Shown: piece after piece, positions 24,964-31,452 of the stretch
Position numbering within the stretch: position 1 is the first letter of the stretch
Layout: every line of letters starts with the position of its first letter
From: Thermoplasmatota archaeon
GTDB lineage: Archaea; Thermoplasmatota; Thermoplasmata; Thermoplasmatales; Thermoplasmataceae
Direction: 5' to 3'
Assembly: GCA_023379845.1 (NCBI GenBank)
Contig: JAMCPG010000036.1
Coordinates: 1 to 46,058 of the forward strand
DNA length: 46,058 nucleotides
Notes under the pieces: generated by a model
Told to the model about the DNA's origin: nothing
Database searches by the model: none
The model's input: only the letters and a program-made list of their open reading frames with translations
Translations under genes and position numbers: made by a program

Positions 24964-25905
24964 TTGCTGACACTGATCCTGGAAACTGCCACGCAGTTCT
25001 TATTCGTTCTGCTAGCTGCACCGCTGTTTGCCGGCATATTTGCCAAATTCAAGGCAATGGTTGAATCGAGAAAAGGCCCGAGCATATTCCAGCCGTATTT
25101 TGACCTGCTCAAGCTTCTTAAGAAGGAGACTCTCGTTCCTCAGGGATCCTCGATACTCTTCAGGTATGTCCCATATGTTGCTTTCGGCGTATACTGCCTT
25201 ATTACGCTGATAATTCCTGTTGTCATTCCGGTGCCGATCATATTCACTGCAAGTGCAGATTTCCTTGGAGGCGCCATCCTGTTCTCCTTTGCCGCATTTC
25301 TGAAGATGGCTGCGGCTATGGATTCCGGAAGCAACCTGGCTGCCATGGGTGTTTCGAGGCTGGCCTCATTCAATTTCCTGGGCGAGGGTGCCCTGATAAC
25401 CGTATTCATTGCGGTATCGCTGATAACAGCCACTGACAACCCATACACGACCAACCAGTACCTGGTTTCGAATCCTTCTGCAAACATTACCCTCGTGCAT
25501 GTGTTTGCAACGCTCGCGTTTTTCATGATTTTTCTCTATGAAACAGGGAAAATACCTCTTGAAAGCTCCGGCATGCAGGAACTCGGCATGATTGATGAGT
25601 CTCTCAATTACGAGTACAGTGGCCGCCTGCTTGCCGTGAATAAATGGTCGTCGTACATGAAACAATACCTCCTTGGATCGGTACTCCTTAACGTTTTTCT
25701 TTTCCCATGGGGGCTCTATTCCACATACCCGTATTTCCTTCTTGATATACCTGTGATGATAGGAAAGTGGCTCCTCCTCATCTTTATCGTCATGATAATC
25801 GAAACAACACTTGCAAAGGTCAGGCTTTTCAAGATACTTGACTATCTTGCAGTTGCTTTCACCTTTTCAATCCTGTTCCTGCTCCTGAGCGAGGTGATGC
25901 ATTGA
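24964..25905 (+). CDS. HyfC/NuoH-like membrane subunit
   Basis: A 313-residue membrane protein of the respiratory complex I subunit 1 (NuoH) and HyfC family, with about 8 helices. It anchors the peripheral arm and holds part of the quinone-site or proton path. The cytosolic loop KFKAMVESRKGPSIFQPYFD and the following LLKLLKKE match the strongest family signature (GPS..QPY.D..KLL.KE), and YETGKIPLESSGMQELGMID is the second signature with its acidic residues. The start is TTG at 24964, preceded by ggaggctaatcaag. The stop overlaps the next start (ttga). First full gene of the six-gene operon. Confidence 0.9.
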   Translation: MLTLILETATQFLFVLLAAPLFAGIFAKFKAMVESRKGPSIFQPYFDLLKLLKKETLVPQGSSILFRYVPYVAFGVYCLITLIIPVVIPVPIIFTASADFLGGAILFSFAAFLKMAAAMDSGSNLAAMGVSRLASFNFLGEGALITVFIAVSLITATDNPYTTNQYLVSNPSANITLVHVFATLAFFMIFLYETGKIPLESSGMQELGMIDESLNYEYSGRLLAVNKWSSYMKQYLLGSVLLNVFLFPWGLYSTYPYFLLDIPVMIGKWLLLIFIVMIIETTLAKVRLFKILDYLAVAFTFSILFLLLSEVMH

Positions 25906-26543
25906 TCTATGATGGCATAGTTTACCTGATCTCCGCCTCGATTCTCGTAAGCGCCTTCTACATTCAGGGTCAGCGGTACATAATGTCCATGATACGCGGC
26001 CAGCTCGTTCAGTCTATTCTGATCGCTGCCGCATCCTTTCTCCTGGCATATCTTGAAAATTCCCTGGATCTCCTGATCCTTGGCGCCCTTATACTGATAC
26101 TTCGGGGTATATTGATAACCTATATGCTGGAAACCAGGATGCCAAGAAGGAAAAGCTATGTCTTTGAGGAGGGCGTCAATGTACCATATCTATTTCTCGT
26201 TGATCTGGTCTTCATAGTAATAGCGGTCTTCATAATCTATTCCATAATATTCTCAACGCTGGTTCCTATCTCCCAGCCCGGGAATTCCTCAACGCTTCTC
26301 TTTCCGCTACTCCTCTTCTTCCAGGGTATTTTCCTGATTACATCGAGGAGGAGCACCTACACGCAGATCGTTGGTTACGTCGAGGAAGAGAACGGACTCG
26401 TACTGCTCGCAATCTTCCTGCTTCCAGTACCAATAATCATTGAGGCGAGCGTCTTCCTTGACGTACTTGCGCTCGTGGTCATATCGTCTGTCATTACGGT
26501 GGAGAAATCCACCCACGAAAGAATGGAGGAGCTGAGGGGATGA
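25902..26543 (+). CDS. HyfE-like membrane subunit
   Basis: A 213-residue membrane protein with about 6-7 helices, matching hydrogenase-4 component E (HyfE), whose N-terminal half is related to NuoK. Family-like features are IQGQRYIMSMIRGQLVQSIL at residues about 22-41, and the C-terminal VEEENGLVLLAIFL, with a run of acidic residues before a helix. It belongs in the membrane arm next to the antiporter-like subunits. TTG start overlapping the stop of the upstream gene, and its own stop overlaps the next ATG (atga), so translation is coupled along the operon. NuoK and MrpC are more distant alternatives; HyfE is the better fit because of length. Confidence 0.82.
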   Translation: MIYDGIVYLISASILVSAFYIQGQRYIMSMIRGQLVQSILIAAASFLLAYLENSLDLLILGALILILRGILITYMLETRMPRRKSYVFEEGVNVPYLFLVDLVFIVIAVFIIYSIIFSTLVPISQPGNSSTLLFPLLLFFQGIFLITSRRSTYTQIVGYVEEENGLVLLAIFLLPVPIIIEASVFLDVLALVVISSVITVEKSTHERMEELRG

Positions 26544-27886
26544 CGCCGGGTACATTGATCTCCCTTCTTCTATTGCTGGTCCCTGGAATAGCGGCGATAT
26601 TCTATTTCAATAGCATCCGGCTGGCAACAGTTGTTGCGGCCTCGGTCGACGAGGTGCTCTCGGTTCTGCTTTTCTGGATAATGCCGCCACGGGGTTTCTT
26701 CTTTGTTGATCATACCACAGATATATTCGTGTTCATGATAACCAGCATATACCTGCTGTCCAGCATCTATTCCCTCAGGTATATTTCGAACAAGAATGCC
26801 ACCGGCCTGAAGCAGGATACATATTATCTCCTGATCAACCTGTTTGCAGTCTCAATGCTCTTTTCGGCACAGGTCAACAATTATGGCCTGATGTGGGTGG
26901 GGATTGAGGCAACGACAATATCATCGGCCCTCCTGATAATGACAGAGAAGACAGAGGAGTCCCTCGAGGCAACATGGCGGTATATTATAATTGTATCCGC
27001 AGGCGTTACATTTGCATTCATATCCATAATCCTGATATATTACTCGTTCGGGACACTCACTGTTTCAACGATCATCAATTCAGGAATAACGAACACCCTG
27101 TTTGTCAGGGTTGCAGTGTCGATTGCGCTTATAGGCTTCGGAACCAAGATAGGTGTTTTTCCAGTCCACACATGGCTTCCGGATGCACATAGCGAGGCTC
27201 CGTCGCCAGTCAGTGCAATGTTTTCCGGCGTACTTCTCCCAACCGCCTTATACGTACTATATCGTATATTCGAGATTGATCCCATAAAGTCGCTCTTCAT
27301 CTGGTTTGGAACTGCATCAATAGTTGCGGCATCCCTTTTCCTGGGGTACCAGGCCAGATACAAGAGGATGTTCGCCTATTCAACCATGGAGAACATGAAC
27401 CTTGCATTGATAGGTATAGCAACGATGAACCCGATAGGCATAGCTGGCGCCCTTTATCTGCTGATTTCCCACAGCTTCTCGAAGGCCGGCGCTTTCTACT
27501 CATCCGGAAACATTCTCAGATCGACTGGAACAAAGGATGTCGGAAGCGTAAAGGGACTTTCCAGGAGAATGCCATTTACAAGCGCAGCCCTGCTGATGTC
27601 CTCGCTTGGGGTGTCCGGTACCCCGCCGTTCGGGACGTTCTTTGGTGAAATTCTAATCCTGTATGCAATGGTTCTTGTAAATGCCGTGCCGCAGTTCATA
27701 ATCGTTGTCATTTTCCTTGTTTTCGCTTTTGTAGGTATCAACCTGAATGTATCGAGGATGATTTTCGGCCCACCGGGAGAATACAGGGAACCTGGCAGGC
27801 TTATGCCGGCTGTAGCCCTGGTCGCTTCCATGGTGCCGCTTGCCATAGGGGCTTTTTTCATGGTGGTGAATTATGCAATACTATAA
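26540..27886 (+). CDS. HyfF/NuoM-like proton-translocating subunit
   Basis: A 448-residue membrane protein with about 13-14 helices of the antiporter-like family (NuoL/M/N, MrpD, HyfF). The key residues are present: the helix-5 Glu in LMWVGIEATTISSAL, the broken helix 7 with Lys (GFGTKIGVFPVHTWLPDAHS then EAPSPVSAMFSG) and the polar helix-12 region (SSLGVSGTPPFGTFFGE). These carry protons across the membrane in complex I and group 4 hydrogenases. The length is nearer HyfF (about 500) than NuoL (about 600). Overlaps its neighbours on both sides, by four bases upstream and by 14 bases downstream. Confidence 0.9.
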   Translation: MTPGTLISLLLLLVPGIAAIFYFNSIRLATVVAASVDEVLSVLLFWIMPPRGFFFVDHTTDIFVFMITSIYLLSSIYSLRYISNKNATGLKQDTYYLLINLFAVSMLFSAQVNNYGLMWVGIEATTISSALLIMTEKTEESLEATWRYIIIVSAGVTFAFISIILIYYSFGTLTVSTIINSGITNTLFVRVAVSIALIGFGTKIGVFPVHTWLPDAHSEAPSPVSAMFSGVLLPTALYVLYRIFEIDPIKSLFIWFGTASIVAASLFLGYQARYKRMFAYSTMENMNLALIGIATMNPIGIAGALYLLISHSFSKAGAFYSSGNILRSTGTKDVGSVKGLSRRMPFTSAALLMSSLGVSGTPPFGTFFGEILILYAMVLVNAVPQFIIVVIFLVFAFVGINLNVSRMIFGPPGEYREPGRLMPAVALVASMVPLAIGAFFMVVNYAIL

Positions 27887-29045
27887 GACGACGAGAGGAG
27901 GTGGGAGATATATCGGGCAGACAAGGAACTTTACGGTATATTCCGATTCCATTGTTCCACCGATCAGGGTTGAGAAAAAACCCAGTGAAATACTGCCCGG
28001 AGAGCTCATTTTCAATTACGGTCCTTCCACAGGAGGGCTTATCGAGTCAGTGCGGATCGCTTTACCCACGCCGGGTGAGATGATACGATCTGTTGCAGTA
28101 GACCCAGCTTACAAGCTCAGGAAGCTAAAATTAACGGGTCTCAGCCTGTTTGACGCCTTCATGCGGGTGGAGAGGATCAATGGGTATCATTCATCATCCT
28201 ACCAGGCTGCGTTTATAAAGGCCGCCGAAGATGCTCTCCTTATTGGAGATAACAGGGGAATTGATGATGGATTGGTCCTTCAGATGGAACTCGAAAGAAT
28301 TAGGAGCCACCTTAACGTGCTAGAGCGTCTTTGTGAACCGGCAGGGTTTGGGGTTCCATATCATCAGCTTGCACAGATGAGGGAGGAGGTTGCCCGCTTG
28401 ATATCGTCTATTTATGGCCACAGGTATTTCTTTGGCGTTCATGCCTCTTTGCAATCAAGCCCGAAGATTTCGCCTGGCCTCACTGCAACTGCAAATGGAT
28501 TGAAGAAACGCTTCGCTCTCCTCTTCGAGAGCCTGCAGAGTTCCAAGATATTTGTCAACAGGCTGCAGGGCACAGGAAAGATAGAGAAGCCCTGGCTTGT
28601 TGGACCTGTTGCAAGAGCTGCAGGCTACAGGCATGATGCAAGGACGGACAGCCCTTCCCTGAATTATGAGGGATATGGATTTGATCCGGTGGTCGAGGAC
28701 GGAAAGGACGCTTTTGCAAGATTCCTGGTGAGGGGAAACGAGATTCTCTCTTCCTTCGCAATAGTGGATCAGGTTATTTCGAATGGCAAACCTGAGAGTG
28801 CAGGACTGAAAGATATGCATGGAACAGGTATTGGAGCATCGCGGGTTGAGAGCCCCCAGGGGGATCTCTTCTGCTATCTTACGCTAAAAGATGGCATGGT
28901 GGAGAACATAGAATTCTGCTCTCCATCGATCTCAAACATCATTGCGTTTGAGCTGTCAATGCAGGGGAACATATTCACGGATTTCCACTTCAACTGGGAG
29001 AGCTTTGGAATCTGGATATCGGAAGCGGGGGTGGAAATCGAATGA
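27873..29045 (+). CDS. HyfG/NuoD-like large subunit lacking all Ni-binding cysteines
   Basis: A 390-residue protein of the group 4 [NiFe] hydrogenase large subunit/NuoD family. It keeps the family backbone: a short NuoC-like start, FNYGPSTGGLIESVRIAL, DAFMRVERI, ELERIRSHLNVLERL (histidine in the NuoD-conserved helix), and SAGLKDMHGTGIGASRVESP PQGD, but the two CxxC nickel motifs are replaced. Where ERICGxC is expected the sequence is ERINGYHS (Asn103 and His106), and at the C-terminus where DPCxxC is expected it reads FGIWISEAG (Trp381 and Glu384). It cannot hold a NiFe site, so H2 chemistry is excluded. Complex I NuoD also lacks them, but this protein is closer to HyfG in gene order. No maturation protease recognition site remains. 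Confidence 0.88.
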   Translation: MQYYKTTRGGGRYIGQTRNFTVYSDSIVPPIRVEKKPSEILPGELIFNYGPSTGGLIESVRIALPTPGEMIRSVAVDPAYKLRKLKLTGLSLFDAFMRVERINGYHSSSYQAAFIKAAEDALLIGDNRGIDDGLVLQMELERIRSHLNVLERLCEPAGFGVPYHQLAQMREEVARLISSIYGHRYFFGVHASLQSSPKISPGLTATANGLKKRFALLFESLQSSKIFVNRLQGTGKIEKPWLVGPVARAAGYRHDARTDSPSLNYEGYGFDPVVEDGKDAFARFLVRGNEILSSFAIVDQVISNGKPESAGLKDMHGTGIGASRVESPQGDLFCYLTLKDGMVENIEFCSPSISNIIAFELSMQGNIFTDFHFNWESFGIWISEAGVEIE

Positions 29046-29677
29046 AGAACACCATCTGGTTTCTTAAGGGCATCAGGAACGGAAGGAAGACAGAGAAGTT
29101 CCCTTCAACGAATCCCGAAGAACCGCCCCTGTGGCCCTCAAGGCTTGTTGGCAGCGGAACGCCTGAATGCCCGACCAGGGCTTTTGACGGCGGAAAGTGG
29201 AATTCCGGGAAATGCATATCATGCAGGCTCTGTCTTCCCGATTATCAGCCCACTGGTGACCAGAGTATCCACAATATCAAGGGCAAGGTTCAAAAGATGC
29301 TGTCAAGATCCTTCTACCTGTATCCTGTAGATTCTGGTACGTGCGGCGCATGCAATACCGAGCTGCTCTCAATACTTGCGCCGCAGTTTGATGCAAGCCG
29401 GCTGAACATATTCTTTACGAACACGCCAAGACACGCGGATGCCCTTGTCCTTATGGGCGTATACACACAGGGAATGGAACAGGTCATAGCTAAGGCATAC
29501 GAAGCGATGCCGGAACCAAAGCTTGTCATCTCCTTAGGGGCATGTGCAATAAGTGGAGGGATTATCGGAAAGGAACCATTGCTCGCCAGGGGATCTTTAA
29601 TTGAAATTTCCGGATGCCCTCCAAGTCCGTACACAATCCTTGAGGCGCTCGTAAGGGCCAAGGAGGGAAAAACATGA
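29042..29677 (+). CDS. NuoB/HyfI-like small subunit with an N-terminal half-ferredoxin domain
   Basis: A 211-residue protein. The C-terminal 120 residues are NuoB/HyfI: Cys101 and Cys104 (DSGTCGACNTELLS), Cys168 (SLGACAISGG) and Cys192 (ISGCPPSPYTI), the four ligands of the N2-type [4Fe-4S] cluster. The preceding 70 residues contain Cys43 (ECPTRAF) and a C-x2-C-x2-C group, Cys58, Cys61, Cys64 (KCISCRLC), enough for one more [4Fe-4S] cluster and resembling half of a HyfH/NuoI ferredoxin. No separate HyfH/NuoI gene exists in the operon, so this fusion supplies the electron path. Electrons would pass from the N-terminal cluster to N2. Four-base overlap on both sides. Confidence 0.88.
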   Translation: MKNTIWFLKGIRNGRKTEKFPSTNPEEPPLWPSRLVGSGTPECPTRAFDGGKWNSGKCISCRLCLPDYQPTGDQSIHNIKGKVQKMLSRSFYLYPVDSGTCGACNTELLSILAPQFDASRLNIFFTNTPRHADALVLMGVYTQGMEQVIAKAYEAMPEPKLVISLGACAISGGIIGKEPLLARGSLIEISGCPPSPYTILEALVRAKEGKT

Positions 29678-31452
29678 ATCCAGCCTTTCTCTCGCTCATC
29701 ATAACAGCAGCCGCAATTCCTGTCGGGATCAGGTGGAGGAAAGCGTCGTATTCGCTGGTGATCGCGGGATCGATTGTTCTGGCGGTATTCACGCTGCTTG
29801 GCTCCGGGGATCTTGCATACCCTCTATCGTATTTCTCCCTTATAGCTGCGATTGCGTGGATCCTGATCTCTGTATTCTCAATGACATACTCGTCAGGCTA
29901 CGGGAAGTGGCTTACGCCTCTTTTTGCGATGACGGTGCTCGGAATGATGGTTATACTGGAATCCTCAGATTATGTGACATTTATCATAGGCTGGGAGATA
30001 ATGTCGACTCCAGCTTATGCATCCATCGGCCTCAACAAGGAGCACTGGAACGCTGCATATGTTTTCATGGTCTTCAGCGAAATCAGCACCGTATTCCTGA
30101 TAATTGGCGCAATCTTAGCTGTCCAGGAGACCGGTACATTGGACTTCCGCTTCCAGAGCCTTACCTCGGATCTTCCCCTGCTTCTGATTGCGATCGGCTG
30201 CATGACCAAGATGGGCATAACCCCGTTCATGATAAGCGAGTGGCTTCCGATTGCGCATGGAAATGCGCCTGCGAATGACTCGGCACTGTTCAGTGCCACG
30301 ATGACACTGATGGGCGTGTTTGGAATAGTCAGGGTCATGCTTCTCAGCCCTCCGTCTCTTTACCTTGGATTTTTCCTTCTTGCGGTTGGAGTGCTTACGG
30401 TATTTTTTGCAGCACTCTTCGCATACGTGTCAGAGAACATGAAGATGCTCGGCGGTTTCAGCACAATAGAGAACAATGGCTCCATCCTGGCGGCCATCGG
30501 ATTGTATGTCGCCCTGGATGGAAGCGTTCTTAAAACCTATCTTCTATCTGTTATACTCATATTTGCGCTCGCACATTCCGTCGCCAAGACCGGTCTTTTC
30601 ATTGGCATCGGAACCACTAGAAAGGAGAATTTCAGCGAAATAGAGAGCAGGAAAAGCTCTACAATGACAGTCGGCTGGTTCCTTGTCACCATGTCCCTTT
30701 CAGGCTTGCTTCCAACAATTGGAGGTCTCGGGACATGGATGCTTCTTGAGTCGTTCTTCATGGGAGCATACCAGTATGGTCTCATAGGGATTGCCAGTGT
30801 GGTCGCAGGATCGATGATTGCGCTTGCTGAAGGTCTCGCATCCGCATCCATGATGAAAGTGCTCTCATTCACCCAGGTCCACGGACGCCCAGGGGGAAGC
30901 ATGAAAAGCATTGAGGGATATGTCCTGTTCGCCACAGGAAGTGTGCTTGTACTGCTCTTCGTCTTGGCGAATTTTCTTGTCCGGCCGCAGTTTATTTCCG
31001 GTCTCCCTTCAGTTCTCGTTTACAATGGTTTCACAATTCAGTCCAGGTTCAGCGCCGCTGATTTCGGGCTAATCTCGCCGCTGTACGTTCTTGCCATAAT
31101 AACTATATTTGCGGCACTGGCGTACATGATATTCGACAGGCGGGGAGGAGAGCCGAGGGTTGTCCCAAGATGGAACGGCGGTGTTGACTTCGATCAATAT
31201 TACACTTCATTCGCATATGCCAGCAATATCAGGCTGATGCTGAAAGGAATCCTCAGAACCCGCATGAGAGATGGAAACAGGCAGATGAGCGTTGTCGATG
31301 TCTTCTGGTATGCTATGCAGTCATTCGCATCCGGATACAGGAGATTTGCAAGGCAGTTCGCATACAGGGTAATGAACAGCTCAATCACATGGTATATGAT
31401 TTACATGATAACTGCATTCATGCTTGTTCTCATACTGGCATTTGTTATCTAG
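29674..31452 (+). CDS. HyfB/NuoL-like membrane subunit
   Basis: A 592-residue membrane protein with about 15-16 helices, of the antiporter-like family and closest in size and order to HyfB. The helix-5 Glu is seen in IIGWEIMSTPAYASIG and the helix-7 Lys in TKMGITPFMISEWLPIAHGN; the following part reads APANDSALFSATM where relatives have AP.PVSA. The loop after helix 8 carries ENMKMLGGFSTIENNGSI and a Lys-bearing helix-10 region LAHSVAKTGLFIGIG. The C-terminal third has a large loop (RRGGEPRVVPRWNGGVDFDQ) and a last helix, as in HyfB. It ends the operon; no gene overlaps it on the 3' side. Together with HyfF it would give two pumping subunits. Confidence 0.87.
   Translation: MNPAFLSLIITAAAIPVGIRWRKASYSLVIAGSIVLAVFTLLGSGDLAYPLSYFSLIAAIAWILISVFSMTYSSGYGKWLTPLFAMTVLGMMVILESSDYVTFIIGWEIMSTPAYASIGLNKEHWNAAYVFMVFSEISTVFLIIGAILAVQETGTLDFRFQSLTSDLPLLLIAIGCMTKMGITPFMISEWLPIAHGNAPANDSALFSATMTLMGVFGIVRVMLLSPPSLYLGFFLLAVGVLTVFFAALFAYVSENMKMLGGFSTIENNGSILAAIGLYVALDGSVLKTYLLSVILIFALAHSVAKTGLFIGIGTTRKENFSEIESRKSSTMTVGWFLVTMSLSGLLPTIGGLGTWMLLESFFMGAYQYGLIGIASVVAGSMIALAEGLASASMMKVLSFTQVHGRPGGSMKSIEGYVLFATGSVLVLLFVLANFLVRPQFISGLPSVLVYNGFTIQSRFSAADFGLISPLYVLAIITIFAALAYMIFDRRGGEPRVVPRWNGGVDFDQYYTSFAYASNIRLMLKGILRTRMRDGNRQMSVVDVFWYAMQSFASGYRRFARQFAYRVMNSSITWYMIYMITAFMLVLILAFVI

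What the first reader, a model, noticed from the sequence alone, without database searches (positions are those of the whole stretch)
24964..31452. Hydrogenase-derived membrane complex without a nickel site (Ehr-type)
Six overlapping genes code for HyfC, HyfE, HyfF, HyfG, HyfI and HyfB homologues, but the large subunit has Asn103/His106 and Trp381/Glu384 in place of the four Ni-binding Cys. The pumping subunits keep their key Glu and Lys. No diaphorase, no F420 module and no maturation genes are nearby. A proton-pumping machine with an unknown electron acceptor (perhaps a quinone at the former NiFe/Q site) and an unknown donor is implied.
Basis: partly seen in the sequence, partly recalled or inferred. 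Interest (0 to 1): 0.8.

Follow-up and report, generated by a model that had tools for sequence, protein, structure and literature searches.

The report
Nickel-free hydrogenase-like proton pump
Six genes of an acid-loving archaeon encode a membrane machine related to both respiratory complex I and proton-pumping hydrogenases, but its nickel site is gone; such complexes are already known, this is a slimmed-down branch of them, and what it reduces is still an open, testable question.

Summary
Observation confirmed. Six overlapping genes (24964-31452, +) encode HyfC, HyfE, HyfF, HyfG, HyfI and HyfB homologues. The four Ni-binding Cys of the large subunit are Asn103, His106, Trp381 and Glu384. This is not an assembly error: none of 54 aligned relatives has the set (four have a Cys at position 103), and HypD passes its cut-off in none of 41 genomes of the family. 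A 77-protein tree places the large subunit outside the NiFe-hydrogenase + complex I branch (100/100); grouping with NuoD is rejected (p-AU 2e-5). It is a strict six-gene cassette without conserved partner genes, lacking the 30-kDa domain, with a two-cluster electron path (8 Cys, each in 54-56 of 56 HyfI proteins). It keeps the MbhL Glu21 equivalent and a four-Cys proximal motif, unlike the sulfur reductase MBS, and lacks complex I's quinone-binding His and Tyr. Best guess: ferredoxin-driven proton pump reducing a membrane quinone (carriers nearly all have terminal oxidases); not shown. The genes were reported in 2013 as 'putative hydrogenase 4' lacking Ni motifs (PMC3750248), so novelty is moderate.

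The parts
24964..25905 (+). HyfC/NuoH-like membrane anchor (313 aa, TTG start); D99, E141, E193, E206 and E217 invariant in 51 relatives
25902..26543 (+). HyfE-like membrane subunit (213 aa, TTG start); E163 and D187 invariant in 53
   Evidence: (NF008556, below cut-off)
26540..27886 (+). HyfF antiporter-like proton channel subunit; E123, K203 invariant, E370 53/54
   Evidence: (NF005042, 592 bits)
27873..29045 (+). HyfG/49-kDa-like large subunit (390 aa), no 30-kDa domain, Ni ligands replaced by N103/H106/W381/E384; E58 (= MbhL E21) invariant
29042..29677 (+). HyfI/NuoB-like small subunit (211 aa): N-terminal single [4Fe-4S] motif (C43, C58, C61, C64) fused to hydrogenase-type proximal cluster motif (C101, C104, C168, C192)
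29674..31452 (+). HyfB antiporter-like proton channel subunit (592 aa); E108, K179, E359 invariant
   Evidence: (NF005046, 637 bits)

Best explanation
A Ni-free, energy-converting-hydrogenase-related (Ehr-type) membrane complex of acidophilic archaea. Reduced ferredoxin, made for example by the cell's 2-oxoacid:ferredoxin oxidoreductases, gives electrons to the [4Fe-4S] cluster fused to the N-terminus of HyfI; they pass to the four-Cys proximal cluster of HyfI and reduce a small lipophilic acceptor, most likely the membrane quinone, in the cavity left by the NiFe site, where Glu58 and the Asn103/His106/Glu384 set supply protons. The redox step is coupled through HyfC and HyfE to proton pumping by HyfF and HyfB. 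Shown here: gene set, cluster motifs, lost Ni site, phylogenetic place, conserved proton-channel residues. Inferred: ferredoxin as donor, quinone as acceptor, direction, pumping.
For: Six-gene order C-E-F-G-I-B in nearly all of 57 relatives (permuted in three), with no conserved partner gene: any other neighbour family occurs in at most 11 of 58 loci, pointing to a soluble shared donor. All eight HyfI Cys conserved, each in 54-56 of 56. A relative on a Burkholderia plasmid carries a complete eight-Cys ferredoxin domain on HyfI. The genome has three POR gamma genes plus a fragment. All carriers in the own family (24/24) and the five in a second family have a heme-copper or bd oxidase, against 3 of 18 genomes taken as carriers of classic Ehr. 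E58 and E384 are invariant in 54. The structure model (pLDDT 90) has the HycE/NuoD fold.
Against: The complex I quinone headgroup residues (H38, Y87) are not conserved: Ile57 and Gly104. All six carriers checked and the own genome also have an ordinary Nuo complex, so a second quinone reductase is not obviously needed. HyfB's TM12 acidic site is shifted. No biochemical data were found for any member.
Confidence: 0.5

Rival explanations
1. Reverse direction: the large proton gradient of acidophiles drives electrons from quinol up to ferredoxin (a pmf-driven quinol:ferredoxin reductase supplying low-potential electrons for biosynthesis or CO2 fixation).
For: Carriers are acidophiles, including iron oxidisers and Metallosphaera; the anatomy is reversible in principle; the host already has a Nuo for the forward direction; the redox span is compatible (general knowledge).
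Against: Heterotrophic carriers have POR-type enzymes that already make reduced ferredoxin (PMC5473848); no conserved link to carbon-fixation genes.
Confidence: 0.15
2. An MBS-like sulfane/polysulfide reductase: ferredoxin electrons reduce sulfur chains at an open proximal cluster.
For: Ni-free member of the same superfamily; sulfur-rich habitats; deep branch present in Thermoplasmatota without oxidases.
Against: MBS opens its proximal cluster by a three-residue-shorter motif and has lost MbhL E21 (PMC7684303); here the motif aligns with MbhJ without gaps, CGAC with four conserved Cys, and E58 is invariant. The genome with the length of T. acidophilum, a sulfur respirer, lacks the complex. Profile score is lower to MbsL than to MbhL, HycE or NuoD.
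Confidence: 0.12
3. A ferredoxin- or NAD(P)-linked pump with another acceptor (e.g. NADP, F420, Fe(III) or a small carbonyl/disulfide).
For: Acceptor site chemistry is not fixed by sequence; classic Ehr relatives occur in genomes without terminal oxidases.
Against: No flavin or nucleotide-binding subunit in the cassette or conserved nearby.
Confidence: 0.15
4. A decayed hydrogenase acting only as a proton/cation antiporter, without redox role.
For: Relatives on Mycobacterium and Allomeiothermus plasmids have lost all four proximal-cluster Cys.
Against: In this clade all eight cluster Cys and the pocket residues E58, R101, G379, E384 are conserved in nearly all members down to 30-40% identity.
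Confidence: 0.05
5. An ordinary complex I (Nuo/Fpo) variant or assembly error.
For: Closest folds include NuoD.
Against: Tree and AU test; separate complete Nuo operon on contig C38; site conserved across independent genomes.
Confidence: 0.01

Closest known systems
Ehr complexes (energy-converting hydrogenase-related; Marreiros et al. 2013, cited in PMC6349859)
   Same: Group-4 hydrogenase-like gene set with antiporter subunits, large subunit without the four Ni Cys, no maturation enzymes.
   Different: Window clade separates from classic Ehr in the tree (100/98); motifs ERINGFHSAS/NWESFGIWISE versus ERISGDNGVAH/NKSFNLSYSGNDL; no 30-kDa domain; one ferredoxin cluster fused to HyfI.
'Putative hydrogenase 4' genes of acid-mine plasmas (PMC3750248) and FAD_0579-0584 of Ferroplasma acidiphilum (PMC5473848)
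   Same: Ferroplasma acidarmanus Fer1 locus L057 has the same six genes; the 2013 paper states that both Ni motifs are missing.
   Different: No cluster inventory, phylogenetic separation from Nuo/NiFe, or mechanism found in the passages read.
Mycobacterium branderi plasmid operon (L118) and M. tuberculosis Rv0082-Rv0087
   Same: L118 has the identical gene order C-E-F-G-I-B; Rv0082-87 has the same kind of gene set by annotation (PMC6901956).
   Different: L118 large subunit carries an N-terminal extension matching NuoC-type models; HyfI there lost the proximal-cluster Cys; Rv0087 was not tested in the tree.
MBS sulfane reductase (Pyrococcus furiosus, PMC7684303)
   Same: Ni-free complex I relative fed by ferredoxin.
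   Different: Window keeps the E21 equivalent and four-Cys proximal motif; MBS lost both and has three clusters.
Respiratory complex I without NuoEFG (own genome, contig C38)
   Same: Homologous core.
   Different: Different clade, no H38/Y87, hydrogenase CxxC instead of CC.

Membership tests
Ehr (Ni-free energy-converting hydrogenase-related complex) | Large subunit homologous to group 4 hydrogenase/NuoD but lacking the Ni-ligating Cys | tested here: met
   N103/H106/W381/E384; 54 relatives aligned
Ehr (Ni-free energy-converting hydrogenase-related complex) | Antiporter-like plus NuoH-like membrane subunits with proton-channel residues | tested here: met
Ehr (Ni-free energy-converting hydrogenase-related complex) | Large subunit outside the Nuo and NiFe clades | tested here: met
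   root not inferred, so Ehr could be a grade rather than a clade
Ehr (Ni-free energy-converting hydrogenase-related complex) | Falls inside the classic Ehr clade of methanogens and rhizobia (a narrower test than Ehr itself) | tested here: not met
   own branch with three bacterial plasmid sequences, 100/98
Respiratory complex I (NuoD/FpoD) | Placement with NuoD | tested here: not met
   p-AU 2.3e-5; no FpoD sequence was included
Respiratory complex I (NuoD/FpoD) | Quinone headgroup residues H38/Y87 and tandem CC in the small subunit | tested here: not met
   I57, G104; CGAC
Group 4 [NiFe] hydrogenase (Hyf/Hyc/Mbh/Ech) | CxxC...CxxC Ni site | tested here: not met
Group 4 [NiFe] hydrogenase (Hyf/Hyc/Mbh/Ech) | Hyp maturation machinery in the genome | tested here: not met
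   no HypD in own genome; none over cut-off in 41 family genomes
MBS sulfane reductase | Shortened proximal-cluster motif with three-Cys coordination | tested here: not met
   gapless alignment with MbhJ, four Cys conserved
MBS sulfane reductase | Loss of MbhL E21 equivalent | tested here: not met
   E58 invariant 54/54; MBS state from PMC7684303
Ferredoxin:quinone oxidoreductase (function) | Ferredoxin oxidation and quinone reduction activity | not testable with these tools
   needs purified enzyme

The most novel reading that the evidence does not exclude
Probability: 0.2. Interest if true: 0.75.

Novelty: new variant of a known kind. Interest (0 to 1): 0.45.

Why it matters
The electron acceptor of Ehr complexes is unknown (PMC10284858 calls their function unknown), and they bear on how complex I arose from proton-pumping hydrogenases. 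This branch has a very small electron-input arm (two predicted clusters, no 30-kDa domain, no separate NuoI), a conserved pocket and a self-contained six-gene unit, and it occurs in cultured acidophiles (Ferroplasma acidarmanus, Acidiplasma, Metallosphaera), so donor and acceptor could be settled with one purified complex. It would also bear on where aerobic acidophiles re-oxidise the ferredoxin made by their 2-oxoacid oxidoreductases.

Tried and rejected
Complex I membership: rejected by tree and AU test. True NiFe hydrogenase: no Cys set, no HypD. MBS mechanism: disfavoured by E58 and the four-Cys motif. A conserved partner gene that would name the donor: not found in 58 neighbourhoods. An alignment of 27 diverse members was too variable for the collection scan; a 10-member alignment worked. 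MbsL, Mbx and FpoD could not be put in the tree, because their full sequences were not retrieved; MbsL was compared only by profile score and by a published description. One literature search found nothing and two returned mostly irrelevant papers.

Full report
Observation. Pfam and NCBIfam identify them as NuoH-like, HyfE-like, two Proton_antipo_M proteins, a Complex1_49kDa protein and an Oxidored_q6 protein; HyfF and HyfB exceed the NCBIfam cut-offs for hydrogenase 4 subunits F and B. No 30-kDa (NuoC) domain was found in HyfG. The Ni-ligand positions align to N103, H106, W381 and E384. Counts over 54 relatives: N103 50, H106 42, W381 49, E384 54, E58 54. Four relatives have Cys at position 103 and one at 381, so single Cys residues persist, never the set.

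Not an artefact. Relatives were found in 57 loci of public genomes: Thermoplasmatales, including Ferroplasma acidarmanus and Acidiplasma aeolicum, Sulfolobales (Metallosphaera yellowstonensis, M. javensis, Acd1), Marsarchaeota, and MAGs labelled Micrarchaeota and Thaumarchaeota. The order C-E-F-G-I-B is kept in nearly all, and F-G-I-B-C-E in three (L076, L077, L079); no other neighbouring family is shared by more than 11 of 58 loci. HypD, needed for NiFe maturation, is absent from the window's assembly (84% complete) and reaches its cut-off in none of 41 genomes of the family, 24 of them at least 90% complete.

Placement. A careful ML tree of 77 large subunits has three well-separated parts: NiFe hydrogenases with NuoD nested among them (100/100), classic Ehr of methanogens, rhizobia, Rhodococcus and Allomeiothermus, and the window clade with three bacterial plasmid sequences at its base (100/98). 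With the site columns removed the groups persist. Forcing window + NuoD together costs 79 log-likelihood units (p-AU 2.3e-5). The root is not inferred, so whether Ehr is a clade or a grade is open. By profile the nearest solved chains are MbhL (160 bits), HycE (137), NuoD (124) and MbsL (113 bits). An AlphaFold model (pLDDT 90, 54-sequence alignment) matches HycE and NuoD folds about equally, so structure does not decide the class.

Electron path. HyfI carries C43/C58/C61/C64, a CP...CxxCxxC ferredoxin-type half, and C101/C104/C168/C192, the proximal cluster; each is conserved in 54-56 of 56 counted sequences. The two labelled Micrarchaeota lack the ferredoxin half. A Burkholderia plasmid relative keeps a full eight-Cys ferredoxin domain, which suggests that the archaeal form is a reduced version. 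The proximal motif is the hydrogenase CxxC, not complex I's CC, and aligns with MbhJ without gaps. In MBS this motif is three residues shorter, one iron lacks Cys, and the E21 of MbhL is missing (PMC7684303). E58 aligns to MbhL E21 and is invariant. The MBS mechanism is therefore disfavoured. The complex I quinone residues H38 and Y87 correspond to Ile57 and Gly104, so a Nuo-type headgroup site is absent; this does not exclude quinone bound otherwise.

Pumping. HyfF keeps E123, K203 and E370; HyfB keeps E108 and K179, with Thr354 at the NuoM-E407 column and an invariant Glu359; HyfE keeps E163 and D187; HyfC keeps E141 and E217. Pumping is inferred by homology.

Physiology. The genome has three POR gamma genes plus a fragment, a heme-copper oxidase and a separate Nuo operon in which no NuoE, NuoF or NuoG was found. 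Of 32 genomes taken as carriers of the window clade, 29 have a heme-copper or bd oxidase; the three without belong to the deep branch. Of 18 genomes taken as carriers of classic Ehr, three have one. This co-occurrence follows taxonomy, and not every listed genome was placed in the tree, so it is weak support for a quinone-linked role. Genome lengths 1,584,804 and 1,564,906 fit Thermoplasma volcanium and T. acidophilum (my recollection); the first has the complex, the second does not. Both respire sulfur (general knowledge), so sulfur respiration does not need it.

Known or new. Yelton et al. 2013 reported these genes in acid-mine plasmas as putative group 4 hydrogenases lacking both Ni motifs (PMC3750248); Ferroplasma acidiphilum FAD_0579-0584 was listed as Mrp/hydrogenase-related (PMC5473848). 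Ehr as a class, and the ignorance of its function, are published (PMC6349859, PMC10284858). I found no description of this clade's two-cluster arm, missing 30-kDa domain and retained E21 in the papers read, hence 'new variant of a known kind'. Supplementary files could not be read and most subscription papers are missing from the library, so this novelty claim is modest.

Verdict. The mechanism offered, ferredoxin-driven proton pumping with quinone as acceptor, is the best guess at about 0.5; donor, acceptor and direction are inferred.

Noticed in passing
L118:13081-13875 and L122:11149-12021: HyfI homologues on Mycobacterium branderi and Allomeiothermus plasmids have lost all four proximal-cluster Cys (e.g. 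SNGS, GTDA, GAPASP) but keep one fused ferredoxin-type cluster motif: complexes apparently without an N2-type cluster.
   Followed up: partly
L120:13069-13602 and L128:1774-2316: Bradyrhizobium and Rhodococcus Ehr operons have a NuoB-like subunit without a ferredoxin domain and no ferredoxin gene in the operon, i.e. one predicted cluster only.
   Followed up: no
L081, L084, L086, L091 large subunits: These divergent members carry a Cys at the first former Ni-ligand position (ERYCGPLS), the only one of the four retained.
   Followed up: no
G000:C39:2393-3118 (L037, L038): A second, partial NuoD on a 3.2-kb contig of the same assembly, different from the one on C38; a strain variant, a second copy or contamination.
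   Followed up: no
L147:10597-11749: In the Aciduliprofundum-like genome G034 the place of HyfF holds only short ORFs, while its relative G068 (L154) has an intact HyfF; possible frameshift or decay.
   Followed up: no
L121:899-11068: Azospirillum sp. B510 plasmid encodes a group 4 hydrogenase with all Ni Cys (ERVCGIC...DPCISC) beside an aldehyde ferredoxin oxidoreductase and hypA.
   Followed up: no
G096 versus G099: Two Thermoplasma-like genomes of one genus differ in presence of the whole cassette.
   Followed up: partly
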